NCBI GenBank assembly: GCA_947470895.1
Contig: CANIVF010000009.1
Span: forward strand, 29,990-93,989
Length of the DNA stretch: 64,000 bases
Direction of reading: 5' to 3'
Source: Bacteroidota bacterium
GTDB taxonomy: Bacteria; Bacteroidota; Bacteroidia; Cytophagales; Cyclobacteriaceae
Part shown: one piece after another, positions 8,159 through 15,955 of the stretch
Layout: each line of letters begins with the position of its first letter
Numbering within the stretch: the first letter of the stretch is position 1
Program-made: the position numbers and the translations under genes
The notes under the pieces: generated by a model
What the model saw: the letters and a program-made list of their open reading frames with translations, nothing else
What the model was told of the DNA's origin: nothing
The model's database searches: none

Positions 8159-9808
8159 TCACCTCCAATCACCCAATAACACAGCAGCAGCCCAATAATA
8201 AGGATGTGAGAATTTTGGATTATTAGCCAGATTAACCTGTGCTAAGCGTAGTGCATCTACGGCAACCATGGTTTTAATGTTCTTGTAAAAATTCTGCATG
8301 AGAATGGAAGTAGCCTCATCATCTACTTTCCAAAGGGTGGCCACTACCGACTTCACTCCATTCTGAAGAAATCCACTTGCGGGACTTACCGGTGAACTCT
8401 CATCGGATCCTTTAGACACTGCCGTTTGACAAGCCGATAACACAACAATATTCAAATGACTCATCACATCCATGCCCCACAACTCCTCTAAGGTAAATTT
8501 ACCATCCTCATCCTTGGCGGGATTGCCAGCCATGGTGATGAATGATTTTCCAAAATCTTCATAGTCGAGGTTTCCATGAGTTGCAAAGTGCATTACATTA
8601 AATTCTTCGCCAGCATATTTAGCTTTATCTTCAGTAGCTTCTTCGCGAAGGAATATCGATGAATTAGGATAGAGACTTTTTATTTCCACTACTTCCAGTT
8701 CGGTAGAAGGGAGTGTTTTATCAGGATTAACGAATGCAAGAATTTTCAACTGACGTGTTTCTGAACCTGTCACCCGTAACAACATATCGGTAGAGCTCGC
8801 ATAGAAAATGGCATACTGATTCATCATCATGCTGAACTTCCCATTCTTTAACGTTTTACCTAACAATTGAAAAGGAATGTAACTGAGTGTACCATTGGGT
8901 ATAATGCATAACCGTTTCTTACCTGCAATCTCAGCACTTGCTGGTGAAATCATATAGTGATACAACTCTTCAAATGGTTTCAACAGCGCATTCACCTGTT
9001 TCATCTCATTTACCTCCTCTTCACGCTCGGCAGCTTCGTTCTTCATATTCAACTTCTCGAATACACATTGGTTGGTGCGAACGATATTCAGTGCCGCGTT
9101 AATGTTTCGCGTCAGTTGAGCACGTGAAATATTCACCACTTTGGCTAACACCGTGTCAGAGGTAGCTATAAAAATATATAACTGATTCTCACCTGGCAGG
9201 TAAGACAATAGCGCCATATCATTAGGAATTTGCATTTTCTTTCCCTTCAGTTGTGCTGGCTGAACACTGTTATTAAAAAATCTGGAAAGTTCTGGTCGCA
9301 CATTTACTTGCTGATTAACAAATTTAAGATAGTCACCTTCGGCTACCGTTTTAATGCCTTCGAGATTCTTTAACTTTTCGATGTTTTGTTTTTCAGCCGG
9401 GAGTGCTTTCTCATTCTCAATCTGCTTTTCAATGCCATCTAACTTTGCCTTTTTATTACGTTCCTCATCAAGGACTTTATTTTTGGCGGCATCCTGAAAC
9501 TTCACATCCATGCCTTTGAATTTTTCTTTCAAATTATCCTCATTGTTTTTTTGAAGATAACTCATGGCCAAATCGGTCTCACCCTGTTGTAACAATACAT
9601 CGACCAGTGTTTCATACACTTTCAAAATATTTTTATCGGATGAGAACATCTTACGGGCCTCTTCACCGCCAGAAACTTTATTTCTGATTTTTCCAATCAC
9701 CTCGATTGATTCTTTAAGGTATTGAGTGCTCTGAGGAAGCTGCTTATTCTCTTTATACAGAATCCCAAGCCAATATAAGCTCTCCCAAAGCGTGTTGGTC
9801 TTACCCAT
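8159..9808 (-). CDS. CHAT protease domain fragment of the TPR-CHAT locus
   Basis: The C-terminal part of the broken locus, 549 aa from the first ATG after the TAG at 9833. The frame is open from 9832. It starts with two last TPR-like units, then a charged coiled coil (about residues 85-150). A CHAT domain follows from about residue 190 to the end. The catalytic His is in HFATHG (His411) and the Cys in LSACQT (Cys460), with the family motifs VATLWKVDDEAT and YYWAAAVLLGDW at the end. CHAT domains are clan CD cysteine peptidases related to caspases and separase. If translated alone it would have no export signal and would stay in the cytosol, unlike the intact parent. Confidence 0.75.
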   Translation of the reverse strand: MGKTNTLWESLYWLGILYKENKQLPQSTQYLKESIEVIGKIRNKVSGGEEARKMFSSDKNILKVYETLVDVLLQQGETDLAMSYLQKNNEDNLKEKFKGMDVKFQDAAKNKVLDEERNKKAKLDGIEKQIENEKALPAEKQNIEKLKNLEGIKTVAEGDYLKFVNQQVNVRPELSRFFNNSVQPAQLKGKKMQIPNDMALLSYLPGENQLYIFIATSDTVLAKVVNISRAQLTRNINAALNIVRTNQCVFEKLNMKNEAAEREEEVNEMKQVNALLKPFEELYHYMISPASAEIAGKKRLCIIPNGTLSYIPFQLLGKTLKNGKFSMMMNQYAIFYASSTDMLLRVTGSETRQLKILAFVNPDKTLPSTELEVVEIKSLYPNSSIFLREEATEDKAKYAGEEFNVMHFATHGNLDYEDFGKSFITMAGNPAKDEDGKFTLEELWGMDVMSHLNIVVLSACQTAVSKGSDESSPVSPASGFLQNGVKSVVATLWKVDDEATSILMQNFYKNIKTMVAVDALRLAQVNLANNPKFSHPYYWAAAVLLGDWR

Positions 9809-9832
9809 CTCACGAGACTTTTTGATACTCTC

Positions 9833-12800
9833 CTATAATAAAGGTTTTGCCTTCGCATAATTTTTTCGCACCACTTCAAGCTGTCCCAGCAAATTCATGT
9901 TCCCAACGTAGGAAATCATCAAATTCTTTTCCTTCGATACCTTAACTCCATCCGTCAGGTATGTGAAGCCTTCATCATATTTTTTCTCTTCGATTTTTAG
10001 TCTGCCCAGAACACCCAATGCATCAACTTTAGATCGAATAGCTCCAACTAGTTCACAGGTTTTCAAAGATTCTTTCAACCATTTATCTGACTCCAGAAAA
10101 TTATTCAGATAAAAATAAGATTCCCCGATGGCAGCCTGTACAATAGAAAGATTTTCATTTAAGTCGTTTGCTTTTTTCATCAAAGCCAATGACTGTTCGT
10201 AATACTCCAATCCTTTTTTGTAATCACCTTGAGATGTATAGATCTCGCCTATGTTTGCCAAAGGGGCCAAACGAGAATAATGAGCATTTGCTTTAGAATA
10301 TAAGCTATCCGCTTTATGTTGATTTTGCAATGCGAGTTCATATTCACCAAGCTGTTTGTATATATTTCCAAGATCGATATAGGAACCCGCCATTCCCCAT
10401 TCGTTGTGGAGTTCGTTGTATAACTTCAAACTCTCATCAGCCAACACAACGGCTTTTTGAAACTCCCCCACTTCTCTCAGCACAGTAGCTCTTGCGCCAA
10501 TTACCATTGCTTTGATAGACACGTTATTCAGTGTATCAGCAATTACCTGAGCCTGATCAATATATTGAATTGCTTTTGCATTATCACCATACACATAACT
10601 GGCATCCGATCCTATTCCGACCCAGGTAGAAGCTACTTCTTTCCATTGCTTATTCTTCTTATATAAGTCTAACGCCTTAATCGCATTTCCGTCAGCTAAA
10701 GCCGCTTTGCCTTGAGAACGATAAAGCCCTTTCATGCGCAAATAGCAATAAGCCAGAATATCATCACCTTTTAATTCAAAAGCTATCTTTACAGATTCAT
10801 TAAAATAAACTTCTGCCTCCTTATAATTACTCTCAACACCTTGCATGATCGTACCCATATTAGCGAGTGTATACACCACACCTGCCTTATCTTTTATTTT
10901 TCTCTGAAGAACCAAAGCCCGATTGTAATAATCAATGGCTAGTTTATACTCATTCTTATTTTGATAAGCTCCGGCCAATTGATTCAATGAAGAAGCCCAG
11001 TTCAATGTATCCTTCTGCGCTTTCCGAAGCAAAATAGCTTGATTGAAAAAATCAAATGCCTTCGTATAGTCTTTTGATTTTAATGAGTTGGCTGCTAAAT
11101 CATGGTAGGTTGATGACAAGAGCGTAGAGTCATTGGTGATTTTAAGAGACTCCAATGCATGGACCAGAGCATTGGCCCTTTCAACTGGATTATTTGTTTC
11201 GGTATACAAGGTTGCCAACTTTGACCACGAACTGGCCAATTGCTCATAATTTTTACACCGGGTAGCTAACTCAATAGCAGCCCGATGAGAAGCAATCGCC
11301 TTTTGAAAGTCAAGTAAGCTCCAATAATTCTGCCCGATGTTTGATAACATCACCGATGCGTTTACAGAATCACGCACCTCAATAAACAAGTCATAAGCTA
11401 TCCGGAAATTCACGATGGCGACTTTATATCTGCTCTGATTCTGCCCCATATTATAGGCCATATCCCAATAAGAAGAAGCAGCTTCCTTCTTATCGCCAGC
11501 CATCCGATACAATTCAATAGATTTCATATAAAAATCATTGACCTTACTATAGTCCTTCATCTCTTTATAAACTCCGGCAATACTTTCAGCAGCACTACCC
11601 TCTTTAACAAAATCGCTCAATTCATGATAAAGTCGCAAGGACTCATTTAACGCCTTAAGTTGTTTAGCCACATTTTTAAAATGCCCATAAGTAAATCCGA
11701 ACCTTTCGTATGTATCCGCACGATTTGCTCGGTGATTGGGTCGGATTGTCAGCGCAAGAGCACGTTCATGGGTTTTATAAGCATTCACAGAATCTCCTAA
11801 ATCACGAAACTGGTAAGCCATGTTATTAATAATGGTGACAAGGTTACCGGTATCTTTTAAAACGATATAGATCTTTTCAGATTCCTTAAATAACTCAATT
11901 GCCTTTCGGGGATTTTTCAAATAGTCCTTTCCTTGCAACAAAGCAAAGTCCCAAAAAGCATCCGCCCTTTTTGACAAGTCACTTGGATTGACTAAGGCGA
12001 TACGCTCCAGAGCTTTCAGTAAAGCCTGTGAAAATTGCTTCGATCCCTTATAGGAATCCAAAAGGTTTTTCTTTGTTTTCACAAGCTTAACAGTATCCTT
12101 TATATAGGTATAAATCTTCTCAGACTCGTTATAACTTATAATCGATTGAGCATAGTCTTTATGATCATAACTTAAAGCACCCTGATAATCCAGAGCAAGC
12201 GCTAGGCTTGTTTTATTACCCCAATTACGGGCTAACAAAATAGCATCTTGCACGGCTCGCTTTGCCTGATCATAATTATTCAATTTGTTATAATTGATCG
12301 CTGCATTCTTCCTTAGAATAATCATACTACTGGAATCTTGCAAAGACTTATAAATTTCAAAAGCCTTATCAAAATACCGTATTGCCTCGGAATAATTCTT
12401 AACACCATCAGCATAAACAATTCCTGCATTCCAAAGGATATCAGCTTTTTTTTCTGGTTTATTATTCTGGCTCGCTAATTTCAGGGCGTATTGATTGTAA
12501 TCCATTGAGGGCTTGTAGTCACCCATCTTATTGAAAAGTAAAGCAATAGCTTCTAAAGAATTAAATAAATTATCCTTGTGGTCAGCATTATCAGATTCTT
12601 CTTTTACCAGCTCCTCCCTGATTTTAATAGCTTCTTTATAAACTTCTATTGCTTCCTTGGTTTTTGAAAGATTGTCATACGCTTGTCCCAGAAAATTCAA
12701 CGCATAACCGCGACCAAACAAAGTACTTGACTTTTTAAAACTATCATCCGCACGTTTTGCCCAAAAAGCTACTGCCGCATAATTCTCAAGCGCTTCAAAT

Positions 12801-13108
12801 ACCAGCGCCATTTCATACTCATATTTGGCAGAAATAAAATGCTCACTTAATTTCTCGCCTAGAAAGATGCAACTGCCAAGCAGATCTTCTGCTTCTTTAT
12901 ATTGCTTGTTCTCACGAAACCCCTTTGCCTCTTTATACCATTCCTCTGCTAGGTCAATCGTGATTCTTCTCTGGTAAAAAGTATATCGCTCATCCCACTC
13001 GGTAGAATCTTCAGGTAAGAAAAGAGCCTTTAATGCCGCTGCTGTCGTGCGGTCTCCCTCCAAAGAGTAATCCGAATAATCATCAATGAGCGACATCGAC
13101 CTACACAT
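9833..13108 (-). CDS. TPR-array fragment of the TPR-CHAT locus
   Basis: The middle part of the broken locus. It is 1091 aa from ATG 13108, although the frame is open from 13135. It consists almost only of TPR units of 36-42 residues, roughly 25-28 of them (typical pieces: AIEVYKEAIKIREEL, ALDYQGALSYDHKDY, ALANMGTIMQGV, YIDLGNIYKQLGEYELAL). The spacing is that of kinesin-light-chain/Rapsyn-like TPRs, which often sit in front of CHAT domains. It ends in the middle of a repeat at TAG 9835-9833, and the next unit continues after the stop in the same frame. This fits truncation of a longer solenoid rather than a natural end. No signal peptide or enzyme motif lies inside this piece. Confidence 0.75.
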   Translation of the reverse strand: MCRSMSLIDDYSDYSLEGDRTTAAALKALFLPEDSTEWDERYTFYQRRITIDLAEEWYKEAKGFRENKQYKEAEDLLGSCIFLGEKLSEHFISAKYEYEMALVFEALENYAAVAFWAKRADDSFKKSSTLFGRGYALNFLGQAYDNLSKTKEAIEVYKEAIKIREELVKEESDNADHKDNLFNSLEAIALLFNKMGDYKPSMDYNQYALKLASQNNKPEKKADILWNAGIVYADGVKNYSEAIRYFDKAFEIYKSLQDSSSMIILRKNAAINYNKLNNYDQAKRAVQDAILLARNWGNKTSLALALDYQGALSYDHKDYAQSIISYNESEKIYTYIKDTVKLVKTKKNLLDSYKGSKQFSQALLKALERIALVNPSDLSKRADAFWDFALLQGKDYLKNPRKAIELFKESEKIYIVLKDTGNLVTIINNMAYQFRDLGDSVNAYKTHERALALTIRPNHRANRADTYERFGFTYGHFKNVAKQLKALNESLRLYHELSDFVKEGSAAESIAGVYKEMKDYSKVNDFYMKSIELYRMAGDKKEAASSYWDMAYNMGQNQSRYKVAIVNFRIAYDLFIEVRDSVNASVMLSNIGQNYWSLLDFQKAIASHRAAIELATRCKNYEQLASSWSKLATLYTETNNPVERANALVHALESLKITNDSTLLSSTYHDLAANSLKSKDYTKAFDFFNQAILLRKAQKDTLNWASSLNQLAGAYQNKNEYKLAIDYYNRALVLQRKIKDKAGVVYTLANMGTIMQGVESNYKEAEVYFNESVKIAFELKGDDILAYCYLRMKGLYRSQGKAALADGNAIKALDLYKKNKQWKEVASTWVGIGSDASYVYGDNAKAIQYIDQAQVIADTLNNVSIKAMVIGARATVLREVGEFQKAVVLADESLKLYNELHNEWGMAGSYIDLGNIYKQLGEYELALQNQHKADSLYSKANAHYSRLAPLANIGEIYTSQGDYKKGLEYYEQSLALMKKANDLNENLSIVQAAIGESYFYLNNFLESDKWLKESLKTCELVGAIRSKVDALGVLGRLKIEEKKYDEGFTYLTDGVKVSKEKNLMISYVGNMNLLGQLEVVRKNYAKAKPLL

Positions 13109-13135
13109 GGTGTTAGAATAATCCTGAACAATGTG

Positions 13136-13546
13136 TTATAAATATGACCACACTTTGGTGGTATCGGTTTCGCTCAAGACTTCATGTAAAAACCTCCCTT
13201 TATTCTTACCTTCCTTCACGCTTTTCTGATCACCCGATTCCCGCAACTTTCTACCCTGCTCATTAATAGTCCGTTGCATGGATATAAGCTTCTCCGTTCG
13301 GAGTCGTGATCCATCCGATTTTAAAATCGCATCTAACGTGTAATAGGGTTTGCCAGCATCATTCAGGAATTCAATACCATACTCGATTACAAAAAAATAA
13401 ATGGAATGAGTTTCCTTTTTAACCCGAATTTGAACGAAGACAGCATCGCCTGCATAAGGAGGGTCGCTTGTCTCTACCAAAGCTGTTGATTGGCCCGATA
13501 AAACTTCGACTAACTTAAGTTTAGCTAAAAACTTGCCTGGGCCACT
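13136..13546 (-). pseudogene. N-terminal domain fragment of the TPR-CHAT locus
   Basis: The open stretch of 136 codons between the TGA at 13547 and the TAA at 13136. A TTG at 13480 is the only start-like codon near its beginning. The sequence looks like one small beta-rich domain (LKLVEVLSGQ, VFVQIRVKKE, SIYFFVIEYGIEF) followed by a charged linker (EGKNKGRFLHEVL). It continues the preceding signal-peptide fragment, which ends VTINHGSEIGLTVN, in the same frame. It probably belongs to one N-terminal domain of the exported CHAT protein. I do not recognise the domain. Translation as a separate protein seems unlikely. Confidence 0.55.
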
Positions 13547-13756
13547 TCAATTAGGATTAACCGTAGTGTATAGTTCACCCGATTGATTGACTGTGAGACC
13601 TATTTCTGAACCATGATTGATTGTTACCAAATATTGCTCAGTGCCTTTCTTAACAACGGAATTCACTTTAAAGGTAAACCAATATTCTTCCGTTTGGCCA
13701 TGTACTGAAACTGTCATCAGACAGCCCATTAAAAAGCTACAAAAATTGATTTTCAT
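13547..13756 (-). pseudogene. Signal-peptide fragment of the TPR-CHAT locus
   Basis: A 69-aa frame from an ATG, with a standard signal peptide (MKINFCSFLMGCLMTVSVHGQ). It then shows short beta strands (EYWFTFKVNSVVKKG, YLVTINHG) and ends at TGA 13549-13547. As a separate product it would be a peptide of about 48 residues after processing. Because the same frame continues without a break in character into the next fragment, I read it as the N-terminus of the giant exported TPR-CHAT protein. The presence of a signal peptide implies the parent protein works in the periplasm or on the surface, not in the cytosol. Confidence 0.6.
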
Positions 13757-13888: not shown

Positions 13889-14665
13889 TCAGGAAAGAAA
13901 GCTGGTTGTTTCGGTTGCCGAGATTACGATATCATCTTCCCCTACTTCATCAAAAGGGTTCTCCAAATGATCCTGAATATTATCAAGGCTTACCAAAATG
14001 AAACTGTAAAGCACGGGCATCACATACTCCAACGAAGCAGAGTAGTCATGGAATGTGCTCGCAAAATAAGGACCATAGATGATGGGGAAAATATAAATGA
14101 ACACCTTACTGTATGTTCTTAATGTGATTGGTGTTCTGTAGTTATGAATGATCTTCATGTTATCAAAGGCAATTATGATTTTGCTAACATACTGGCTCAC
14201 TCTTGAAATTTCACCGCTCTGAACTCCATACTTCCTGAGCTCCATAGTCAACACCGAAAGTCTCGAGAATAATTCATACATCTTCTTTTCATTAGGGTTC
14301 CATTCAGGATTGTGATTGCTTTTAAACATGTCCCTCATCAGCGTCATCATTTCAAGAATAATCTGCTTGGTCTGGATTGGCAGGTCGTTATTCTTATCCG
14401 TTGTCCAATCCCTTGTGGCAAAATACAGAGCGACAGCGTGTCCTTTAAAATCAGCTAGCCGTTGCAGAGCTGTTTCCCTTCGGGTGTAGGCGGATCCGAT
14501 TGAAAATACTACAGGGAAAACAATGGCAACACCAACCAGCATATCAGGAAATTTGGCTGTGAACCCAAAATGAAAGCATAAATACGTAGATATTAATGCG
14601 AGCGCGGTAATAATAAAAGTCTTATAGTTAATGATTGATGAGAAGCTTCGAAAAATTCGTTTCAT
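13889..14665 (-). CDS. Bestrophin-like membrane protein
   Basis: A 258-aa integral membrane protein. Two hydrophobic segments lie near residues 17-60 (FIITALALISTYLCFHFGF, GVAIVFPVVFSIGSAY) and two more near 190-225 (VFIYIFPIIYGPY, MPVLYSFILVSL), flanking a charged, helical cytosolic middle. The C-terminal LDNIQDHLENPFDE motif is the hallmark of the bestrophin/UPF0187 family of anion channels, where it follows the last membrane helix. The channel function is inferred from this motif and topology only, and the protein is a little shorter than usual (about 290). It lies 132 bp upstream of the CHAT locus on the same strand. An 8-bp hairpin covers the start codon. Confidence 0.65.
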   Translation of the reverse strand: MKRIFRSFSSIINYKTFIITALALISTYLCFHFGFTAKFPDMLVGVAIVFPVVFSIGSAYTRRETALQRLADFKGHAVALYFATRDWTTDKNNDLPIQTKQIILEMMTLMRDMFKSNHNPEWNPNEKKMYELFSRLSVLTMELRKYGVQSGEISRVSQYVSKIIIAFDNMKIIHNYRTPITLRTYSKVFIYIFPIIYGPYFASTFHDYSASLEYVMPVLYSFILVSLDNIQDHLENPFDEVGEDDIVISATETTSFLS

Positions 14666-14764: not shown

Positions 14765-15955
14765 TTACTCAGCAAGAACCTCCACTTCTACGCGCACATT
14801 CCTTCTTGCTTTATCACTGTTTTTATCATGTAGCATACGACTGCCACCCCATCCCTTGGTTTCGATACGGTAGGCTGCAATTTGATTTGAAACAAGCCAG
14901 TCCTTTATTGTAATTGCTCGCTGAAGTGATAAGTCTCTTGCCGAACCTGAACCTGTTTTCACATCGGAGCTTAGCTTAAAGAAATTCTTACTCGGCCCCA
15001 TCGAAATGATTCTTCCATTTCCACCACCATTAGTGTGCCCATGTAATCTTATCCGATATGCTTGGTTGCTCTTCAACATATCCAACAACTTACCCAATTC
15101 ATATTTCGATTCGGGCAACATTACGGTTGCATCGTTAAAAAAGTATACATTGTAAAGAGTTTCAATGTCCCCTTTATGCAACCTGTCCACGTCAAACATA
15201 ATAATATAATGATCGTCATCCCATCGTACATAATCAGGAATGCTATCCTTTAAAGTTTGCAGACTCAGCTCATGTTGAACCTTTCTATATCCAAAAGAAT
15301 TTCCTACCAAAGTTACTTTCCCGTTTTTTGTTTTTGGATATGGGATAGATACCAACTGATTCCCTTTTTCCCTCTTCAATAACGTGGATTTCTCCGTGTC
15401 TATAATTTCTACTTCTCCCTCTACGGGCTCGCTATTGTTAGGATTATAGAGACGGAAAATTACTTTGGCATCGGGCAGTGGTGATGACTTCTTTTCTTCA
15501 ACCTTTAATTTTACTTTGTCCTTTTCGTATTTCGTAACCTCCACATTACTTTCCACCGGTGTTATTGTTTTCTTCTGTACAATTTCTTCTGGCTGAATGT
15601 CTGGCTTTCGTACTTCCGCTGTTGAGATTAAATCTTTCATGATACGAACCCAAGCCTTATCAAAGCCTGCGTCTTTACGTGTGTTGAGCATAACACGGAT
15701 TGACTCATTGAAGTCTGTATAATAATCAAGATAAACGTAATAGAAATTGCGTGAAAGATCGAAACCGTATTTAGAATGTAAACCACCCCTATTTAACGTT
15801 TCTGAGTAATCGATCATATACTTTTCCTGCCCGATTCGATAAGCTGCCACCACAATGTAGTAGCCTTTGGGTAACGGATCTCCTATATGGGATTCATTTC
15901 TTGCCGAAATAAAGACATAGCCAAGCAAAGCAAAGACTAAAGCATTTCTTTTCAT
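14765..15955 (-). CDS. OmpA-family peptidoglycan-associated protein with SPOR-like N-terminus
   Basis: A 396-aa exported protein (N-terminus MKRNALVFALLGYVFISA). Residues about 25-110 (GYYIVVAAYRIGQEKYMIDY to FYYVYLDYYTD) look like a SPOR-type domain of the kind that binds denuded glycan strands. A charged linker and a beta-rich part follow (VIFRLYNPNNSEPVEGEVEI). The C-terminal 130 residues are an OmpA/MotB domain (YFFNDATVMLP, IRLHGHTNGGG, LSLQRAITIKDWL, ETKGWGGSRML, RRNVRVEVEV) with the Asp replaced by Asn in the usual HTD motif. Related proteins occur in Bacteroidota motility and envelope systems. It lies 99 bp upstream of the bestrophin-like gene on the same strand. Confidence 0.82.
   Translation of the reverse strand: MKRNALVFALLGYVFISARNESHIGDPLPKGYYIVVAAYRIGQEKYMIDYSETLNRGGLHSKYGFDLSRNFYYVYLDYYTDFNESIRVMLNTRKDAGFDKAWVRIMKDLISTAEVRKPDIQPEEIVQKKTITPVESNVEVTKYEKDKVKLKVEEKKSSPLPDAKVIFRLYNPNNSEPVEGEVEIIDTEKSTLLKREKGNQLVSIPYPKTKNGKVTLVGNSFGYRKVQHELSLQTLKDSIPDYVRWDDDHYIIMFDVDRLHKGDIETLYNVYFFNDATVMLPESKYELGKLLDMLKSNQAYRIRLHGHTNGGGNGRIISMGPSKNFFKLSSDVKTGSGSARDLSLQRAITIKDWLVSNQIAAYRIETKGWGGSRMLHDKNSDKARRNVRVEVEVLAE

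What the first reader, a model, noticed from the sequence alone, without database searches (positions are those of the whole stretch)
8159..13756. One 1865-codon TPR-CHAT frame interrupted by TGA, TAA and TAG without any indel
From ATG 13756 to TAA 8159 the same minus-strand frame carries exactly three stops of three kinds (13549-13547, 13138-13136, 9835-9833). The protein pattern continues across each: signal peptide and beta domain, then TPRs, then an intact CHAT His/Cys dyad. The most visible join is AKPLL-stop-ESIKKSREM inside a TPR unit. A drifting pseudogene would normally collect indels as well. Stops alone suggest very recent loss, clustered mutation, base-calling error, or tolerated readthrough. 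If real, the exported CHAT peptidase is silenced while its frame is otherwise preserved.
Basis: partly seen in the sequence, partly recalled or inferred. Interest (0 to 1): 0.72.

Follow-up and report, generated by a model that had tools for sequence, protein, structure and literature searches.

The report
Young pseudogene of TPR-CHAT protease
A long gene for a predicted exported caspase-like protease is cut by three stop codons of three kinds in this bacterium, while most related genomes either carry it whole or lack it, so it is likely a gene caught early in being lost, an ordinary event seen unusually cleanly.

Summary
In detail: one minus-strand frame, ATG 13756 to a final stop at 8159 (TGA, not TAA), with TGA, TAA and TAG at codons 70, 207 and 1308 and no gap against the closest intact orthologue. 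The 34 orthologues aligned are single proteins of 1826-1924 aa, the best 80% identical. Pieces B and C recur exactly on other contigs (5 and 14), and piece D as a second allele, which speaks against a base-calling error. None of 35 tRNA genes found is a suppressor. The window's copy has changed faster than its sister (110 against 72 lineage-specific residues, p = 0.006), four neighbouring genes have not (48 against 57), and that excess predicts about three stops. The gene is dispensable: 13 of 62 genus genomes carry it; 18 of 18 non-carriers examined (of 49) hold no relic. Best reading: a young nonsense pseudogene of a predicted exported TPR-CHAT protease. The awkward fact is that no indel has accumulated (chance about 0.002-0.02 at indel-to-substitution ratios of 0.1-0.2), which leaves a small chance that the pieces are still translated.

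The parts
13550..13756 (-). piece A, 69 codons: start codon, signal-peptide-like N-terminus, beginning of the N-terminal domain; no Pfam match
   Evidence: Met 1 shared by 33 of 34 orthologues; signal peptide judged by eye
13547..13549 (-). in-frame TGA, codon 70; a variable column in orthologues (commonest residue in 25 of 34)
13139..13546 (-). piece B, 136 codons (ORF of 114 aa from TTG 13480); no Pfam match
   Evidence: the same 114-aa ORF on 5 contigs
13136..13138 (-). in-frame TAA, codon 207; a conserved column (commonest residue in 32 of 34)
9836..13135 (-). piece C, 1100 codons, TPR array (ORF of 1091 aa from ATG 13108)
   Evidence: TPR_12 1.6e-62; identical 1091-aa protein on 14 contigs, longest 115,917 bases
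9833..9835 (-). in-frame TAG, codon 1308; an invariant column in orthologues (34 of 34)
8162..9832 (-). piece D, 557 codons: last TPRs, linker and CHAT (ORF of 549 aa from ATG 9808)
   Evidence: second allele P0122 with one residue different
8168..8977 (-). CHAT caspase-like protease domain (PF12770), 173.1 bits; dyad His at 8578-8576, Cys at 8431-8429
   Evidence: model m85cee20b72c0 matches Csx29 and separase
8159..8161 (-). terminal TGA of the frame
13889..14665 (-). 258-aa protein with hydrophobic stretches (by eye), uninterrupted, directly upstream; matched in 58 of 62 genus genomes and beside the TPR-CHAT gene in 12 of 13 carriers
   Evidence: no Pfam match
14765..15955 (-). OmpA-family protein (PF00691), second upstream neighbour, found in the same order in several relatives

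Best explanation
The frame is one TPR-CHAT gene, carried whole by related bacteria, that three nonsense codons cut in this lineage, and it is likely a young pseudogene decaying under relaxed selection. Shown: the stops, the uninterrupted homology across them, intact orthologues, recurrence of the same pieces on other contigs, faster residue change than in the sister protein, and frequent absence of the gene in the genus. Inferred: the intact protein would be exported, with the TPR array as a sensor or scaffold holding a separase/Csx29-like CHAT cysteine protease. With the stop at codon 70 the only product with an export signal would be a 69-residue fragment, so the protease would be silenced. 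The TPR and CHAT pieces could be made only by starting inside the message, and then without an export signal. The three stops are probably independent single-base hits gathered after the function ceased to be needed; the order of events is not known.
For: Frame and stops. Intact orthologues: the 34 rows aligned are 1826-1924 aa, the best four 80, 79, 78 and 76% identical; in the genus, 10 of the 12 other carriers have open frames of 1797-2044 aa. Not a single miscall: P0014, identical to piece C, on 14 contigs, the longest (115,917 bases) longer than the window's contig (93,989); P0122, piece D with one change, in a four-member cluster on a 56,364-base contig; P0242, piece B, on 5 contigs. Relaxed constraint: 110 window-specific against 72 sister-specific residues (p = 0.006), mostly in pieces C and D (95 against 43); residues new to the family 44 of 110 against 52 of 195 in the other four (p = 0.02); branch 0.15 against 0.11. 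Not seen next door: four neighbours 48 against 57. Dose fits: an excess of 38 missense changes predicts 2.9 stops (1.5 for 20, 4.6 for 60). Dispensable: 13 of 62 carriers; no relic at E <= 0.001 in 18 of 18 non-carriers examined, of 49.
Against: No indel at all: given three stops, the chance of none is about 0.016 and 0.002 at indel-to-substitution ratios of 0.1 and 0.2 (0.3 at 0.02); published bacterial ratios seen run 0.10-0.36, and the frame holds nine homopolymer runs of 6 or more. The finding was picked because it lacks indels, which softens this. Radical changes are not enriched (13 of 110 against 24 of 195), the excess at 95%-conserved columns is not significant (11 of 110 against 9 of 195, p = 0.09), and pieces A and B are not faster than in the sister (15 against 29). 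The catalytic dyad is present. The neighbour control uses other sister species than P0002. Independence of the contigs is not shown.
Confidence: 0.8

Rival explanations
1. The pieces are still made as separate chains, by restarting at ATG 13108 and ATG 9808 just after the TAA and TAG, and a cytosolic TPR protein plus a 549-residue CHAT protein are kept in use.
For: No indel in 5.6 kb. Both large pieces open with an ATG within 27 bases of the preceding stop. The dyad is present. A 554-aa relative (P0127: CHAT with one TPR model) on a 266,839-base contig shows that a short form exists elsewhere, natural or broken.
Against: Pieces C and D are the ones that change faster than in the sister (95 against 43). 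The ATG of piece D is an old family methionine (31 of 34 orthologues) and that of piece C occurs in 10 of 34, so neither looks made for restarting. No TAnnTTTG promoter motif (motif recalled) within 200 bases upstream of either, but none upstream of the full gene either. Export would be lost.
Confidence: 0.1
2. The stops are errors of base calling or consensus in metagenome assembly.
For: Internal stops are a known product of weak assemblies (PMC11017572, abstract seen). Substitution errors would also mimic faster residue change and the lack of indels.
Against: Identical piece C on 14 contigs, piece B on 5, piece D as a different allele on another contig. Neighbours show no excess change. None of 9 CHAT and 71 TPR_12 matches in this genome holds a stop, a weak control, since both lists include this gene's own pieces and count stops inside the match only. 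Several of the contigs may come from the same reads.
Confidence: 0.06
3. The stops are read through by suppressor tRNAs or recoding and a full protein is made.
For: The frame is otherwise open.
Against: 35 tRNA genes read, none with a suppressor anticodon; the search scored 150 of 294 candidates and the set lacks tRNA-Asp and tRNA-Ile, so it is incomplete. Three different stops would each need suppression. The codon-1308 column is invariant in 34 of 34 orthologues, so a random residue there would matter.
Confidence: 0.02

Closest known systems
TPR-CHAT protease Csx29 of type III-E CRISPR (Craspase)
   Different: Far below the NCBIfam Csx29 cut-off (23.1 of 300 bits); much longer TPR array and a signal-peptide-like start; no CRISPR protein among the ten neighbouring proteins scanned, the genome was not searched for one; broken here
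Separase protease domain
   Different: Eukaryotic chromosome protease; no PDB chain found by sequence at E <= 0.001
HetF (cyanobacterial CHAT protein)
   Same: Weak profile match in the CHAT part
   Different: 26.8 bits of a 1200-bit cut-off
DdvA, transmembrane anti-sigma factor
   Different: Known here by the entry title and by passages of PMC4374960 only; no anti-sigma model in the Pfam scan of the window's pieces
Bacterial nonsense pseudogenes
   Same: Recent inactivation by point mutations with intact orthologues
   Different: Three stops of three kinds and no indel in 5.6 kb

Membership tests
CHAT domain family (PF12770) | Profile match above the curated cut-off | tested here: met
   173.1 bits against a cut-off of 24
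CHAT domain family (PF12770) | Catalytic His and Cys present | tested here: met
   H1727 and C1776, each invariant in 34 of 34 orthologues aligned
CHAT domain family (PF12770) | Protease activity | not testable with these tools
   no assay
Csx29 / Craspase | NCBIfam NF041237 above cut-off | tested here: not met
   23.1 of 300 bits
HetF | NCBIfam NF045509 above cut-off | tested here: not met
   26.8 of 1200 bits
Nonsense pseudogene | Internal stops where orthologues have sense codons | tested here: met
   34 of 34 aligned orthologues have a residue at all three columns
Nonsense pseudogene | Stops real, not sequencing error | tested here: inconclusive
   same pieces on 14, 5 and other contigs; no reads available, independence of contigs not shown
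Nonsense pseudogene | Relaxed constraint on its branch | tested here: met
   110 against 72 lineage-specific residues, p = 0.006; sub-tests mixed: new residues p = 0.02, conserved columns p = 0.09, radical changes not enriched
Nonsense pseudogene | Neutral dN/dS after the break | not tested
   no DNA of a close strain or of P0002 was at hand; the nearest held DNA is at 58% protein identity
Nonsense pseudogene | No functional product | not testable with these tools
   needs transcripts, footprints or peptides

The most novel reading that the evidence does not exclude
Stop codons are tolerated in this gene but frameshifts are not: a very long exported TPR-CHAT protease has been chopped by nonsense codons into a coupled set of reading frames whose TPR and CHAT chains are still made inside the cell, turning an exported protease into a cytosolic two-part one.
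Probability: 0.09. Interest if true: 0.6.

Novelty: new member of a known kind. Interest (0 to 1): 0.24.

Why it matters
It gives a clean snapshot of an accessory protease gene in an early stage of loss: intact relatives at 76-80%, three stops, measurably faster residue change and unaccelerated neighbours, in a genus where most species examined lack the gene. The count of stops and the excess of missense changes agree with one dose of neutral mutation, while the lack of indels does not fit well and can be tested with strain data. The intact family, a predicted exported protein of about 1865 residues with a separase-like protease end, is given no function by the libraries scanned or by the eight titles listed.

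Tried and rejected
Natural gene split: rejected as the reason for the window's pieces, since the 34 orthologue proteins aligned and 10 of the 12 other carriers in the genus are single frames. I aligned the 34 best of 120 listed rows (685 found); the list also holds shorter rows such as P0062 (1224 aa) and P0067 (1097 aa), not followed. Candidates were limited by the tool to 0.55-1.75 times the query length, so short pieces could not appear; one search looked for those with piece D and gave P0127 (554 aa on a 266,839-base contig), whose gene neighbours were not seen.

Shared split in two relatives: G013 (OLB12) and G024 (SSA6) both carry the gene in three frames, with dN/dS of 0.105, 0.111 and 0.028 outside the overlaps (that script then stopped with an error). 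At first this looked like a stable split under selection. It was set aside: N letters lie at both junctions in G024, though there are 15 N runs in that 5.7-kb slice, so the coincidence is suggestive only; and a long-read pipeline in print inserts N or NN to keep frame with database proteins and binned a chromosome to OLB12 (PMC6469205, passages). That G024 is that chromosome is my inference. Its breaks are therefore not counted as independent; G013 alone stands as broken, by two frame shifts, one at a run of seven A.

Codon-level dN/dS on the window's gene: not done (nearest held DNA at 58% protein identity). Restart promoters: no TAnnTTTG within 200 bases of any start, the full gene's start included, so uninformative. 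Relics in non-carriers at looser E (up to 10) gave only short scattered matches, best E 0.096. Sequence search of solved structures with the CHAT alignment gave nothing; the fold search did. PADLOC gave BovA at 32.6 bits in the CHAT part and a TPR model. DGR-driven mutation was considered after a paper on CHAT proteins (PMC10907252, passages) and dropped, because the changes spread along the whole frame; no DGR search was run. Paper searches were seen as listings; passages only of PMC4978911, PMC9729208, PMC10907252, PMC6469205 and PMC4374960, and the abstract of PMC11017572.

Full report
What is there. The minus-strand frame from ATG 13756 to 8159 reads 1866 codons with stops TGA, TAA and TAG at codons 70, 207 and 1308, and a terminal TGA. 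The pieces between stops are 69, 136, 1100 and 557 codons. TPR repeats fill the third, CHAT the end of the fourth. The first residues look like a signal peptide (by eye). The catalytic His and Cys are present and are invariant in 34 of 34 orthologues aligned.

Where it is. The window lies on contig 9 of a 4.92-Mb genome in 167 contigs, rated 100% complete. Several same-genus contigs agree in length with records titled Cyclobacteriaceae, Cytophagales, Flammeovirgaceae or Bacteroidetes MAGs, among them OLB12; G024 agrees with CP058703.1 (SSA6) in match position, with 100 bases difference in length. That the window's organism is a Cytophagales bacterium is inferred from these.

Orthologues are whole. 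A search with the X-masked frame gave P0002-P0005, 76-80% identical over the full length. I aligned these and the next rows down to P0036, without P0014 (the window's own piece C): 34 of 120 listed. All have a residue at the three stop columns: the first column is variable (commonest residue in 25 of 34), the second conserved (32 of 34), the third invariant (34 of 34). There is no gap against P0002 or P0005. In the genus, 13 of 62 genomes carry the gene at E <= 1e-100, this one included; 10 of the other 12 have an open frame of 1797-2044 aa and two (G013, G024) are in pieces. G024's two junctions carry N letters, so its breaks are doubtful (see Tried and rejected).

The stops look real. The 1091-aa piece C is in the protein database as one member sequence on 14 contigs, the longest 115,917 bases, longer than the window's contig of 93,989; it is identical to the window's. 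The 114-aa piece B is on 5 contigs and is the same but for the start codon's reading. Piece D is held as a 549-aa protein with one residue different, in a four-member cluster, on a 56,364-base contig. That the contigs are independent data is likely but not shown. None of 9 CHAT and 71 TPR_12 matches in this genome has a stop inside, but both lists include this gene's own pieces, so this is a weak control.

Not read through. The 35 tRNA matches were read by ARAGORN; no anticodon reads a stop. One search scored 150 of 294 candidates and the set lacks tRNA-Asp and tRNA-Ile, so it is not complete.

Relaxed constraint. In the clade P0001-P0005, residues changed in one member alone number 110 in the window's copy, 72 in its sister P0002, 66 in P0004, 25 in P0003 and 32 in P0005. 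Window against sister gives p = 0.006; by piece A-D the counts are 3, 12, 75, 20 against 11, 18, 34, 9. Of the 110, 44 are residues new to the family, against 52 of 195 in the other four (p = 0.02). At columns conserved in 95% the counts are 11 of 110 against 9 of 195 (p = 0.09), and radical changes are not enriched (13 of 110 against 24 of 195). A leave-one-out count over 35 rows gives the window's copy 7 private changes at columns invariant in the others and 73 elsewhere, the highest ratio of the 35 (0.096; next 0.087). The tree gives branches of 0.15 and 0.11. Four neighbours (258-aa protein, GH127, AspRS, GT2) show 48 window-specific against 57 sister-specific changes (p = 0.44), with G022 or G082 as sister. 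So the faster change belongs to this gene, and it is modest.

Dose of mutation. In this frame the ratio of stop to missense opportunities is 0.058-0.085 across the mutation models tried. An excess of 38 missense changes predicts 2.9 stops; three were seen. The same dose predicts indels: given three stops, the chance of none is about 0.016 at an indel-to-substitution ratio of 0.1 and 0.002 at 0.2. Ratios that I computed from a published table (PMC4978911, passages) are 0.10-0.36 in the six prokaryotes whose rows were shown in full. The frame has nine homopolymer runs of 6 or more.

Dispensable locus. The 258-aa upstream gene is matched in 58 of 62 genomes and lies beside the TPR-CHAT gene in 12 of 13 carriers by coordinates. 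Of 49 non-carriers I fetched 18; none has a relic of the gene at E <= 0.001 in the fetched stretch, two of which are short (3.2 and 5.3 kb). In eight of them the next known gene lies 11-205 bases from the 258-aa gene. Among the genomes compared, the nearest by neighbours, G022 (AspRS 93%, GH127 87%), lacks the gene. Whether absence is loss or presence is gain was not resolved.

Verdict. A young nonsense pseudogene of a dispensable, predicted exported TPR-CHAT protease: ordinary in kind, unusually clean in evidence. The lack of indels leaves a small chance that the pieces are still translated.

Noticed in passing
L035 (G024, CP058703.1) about 3.0-8.7 kb; L034 (G013, LNFR01000091.1): G024 holds 17 N letters in 15 runs in this gene region, and runs lie at both of its frame breaks, at the same aligned positions where OLB12's copy shifts. 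Frame correction against a database that holds a broken relative may carry the break into a new genome.
   Followed up: partly
P0127 (554 aa, 266,839-base contig) and P0136 (335 aa, 126,002-base contig): A short CHAT relative starting near the window's piece D, and a relative whose sequence departs from the family before the CHAT domain is complete: breakage of this gene family may recur.
   Followed up: no
window 13889-14665: A 258-aa protein without Pfam, PADLOC or NCBIfam match, with hydrophobic stretches, matched in 58 of 62 genus genomes; a near-core gene of unknown function.
   Followed up: partly
L192-L209: The slot downstream of the 258-aa gene is variable: AspRS, GH127 or a TPR protein follows at 11-205 bases in eight non-carriers, while carriers hold a TPR-CHAT gene of about 5.6 kb there.
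   Followed up: partly
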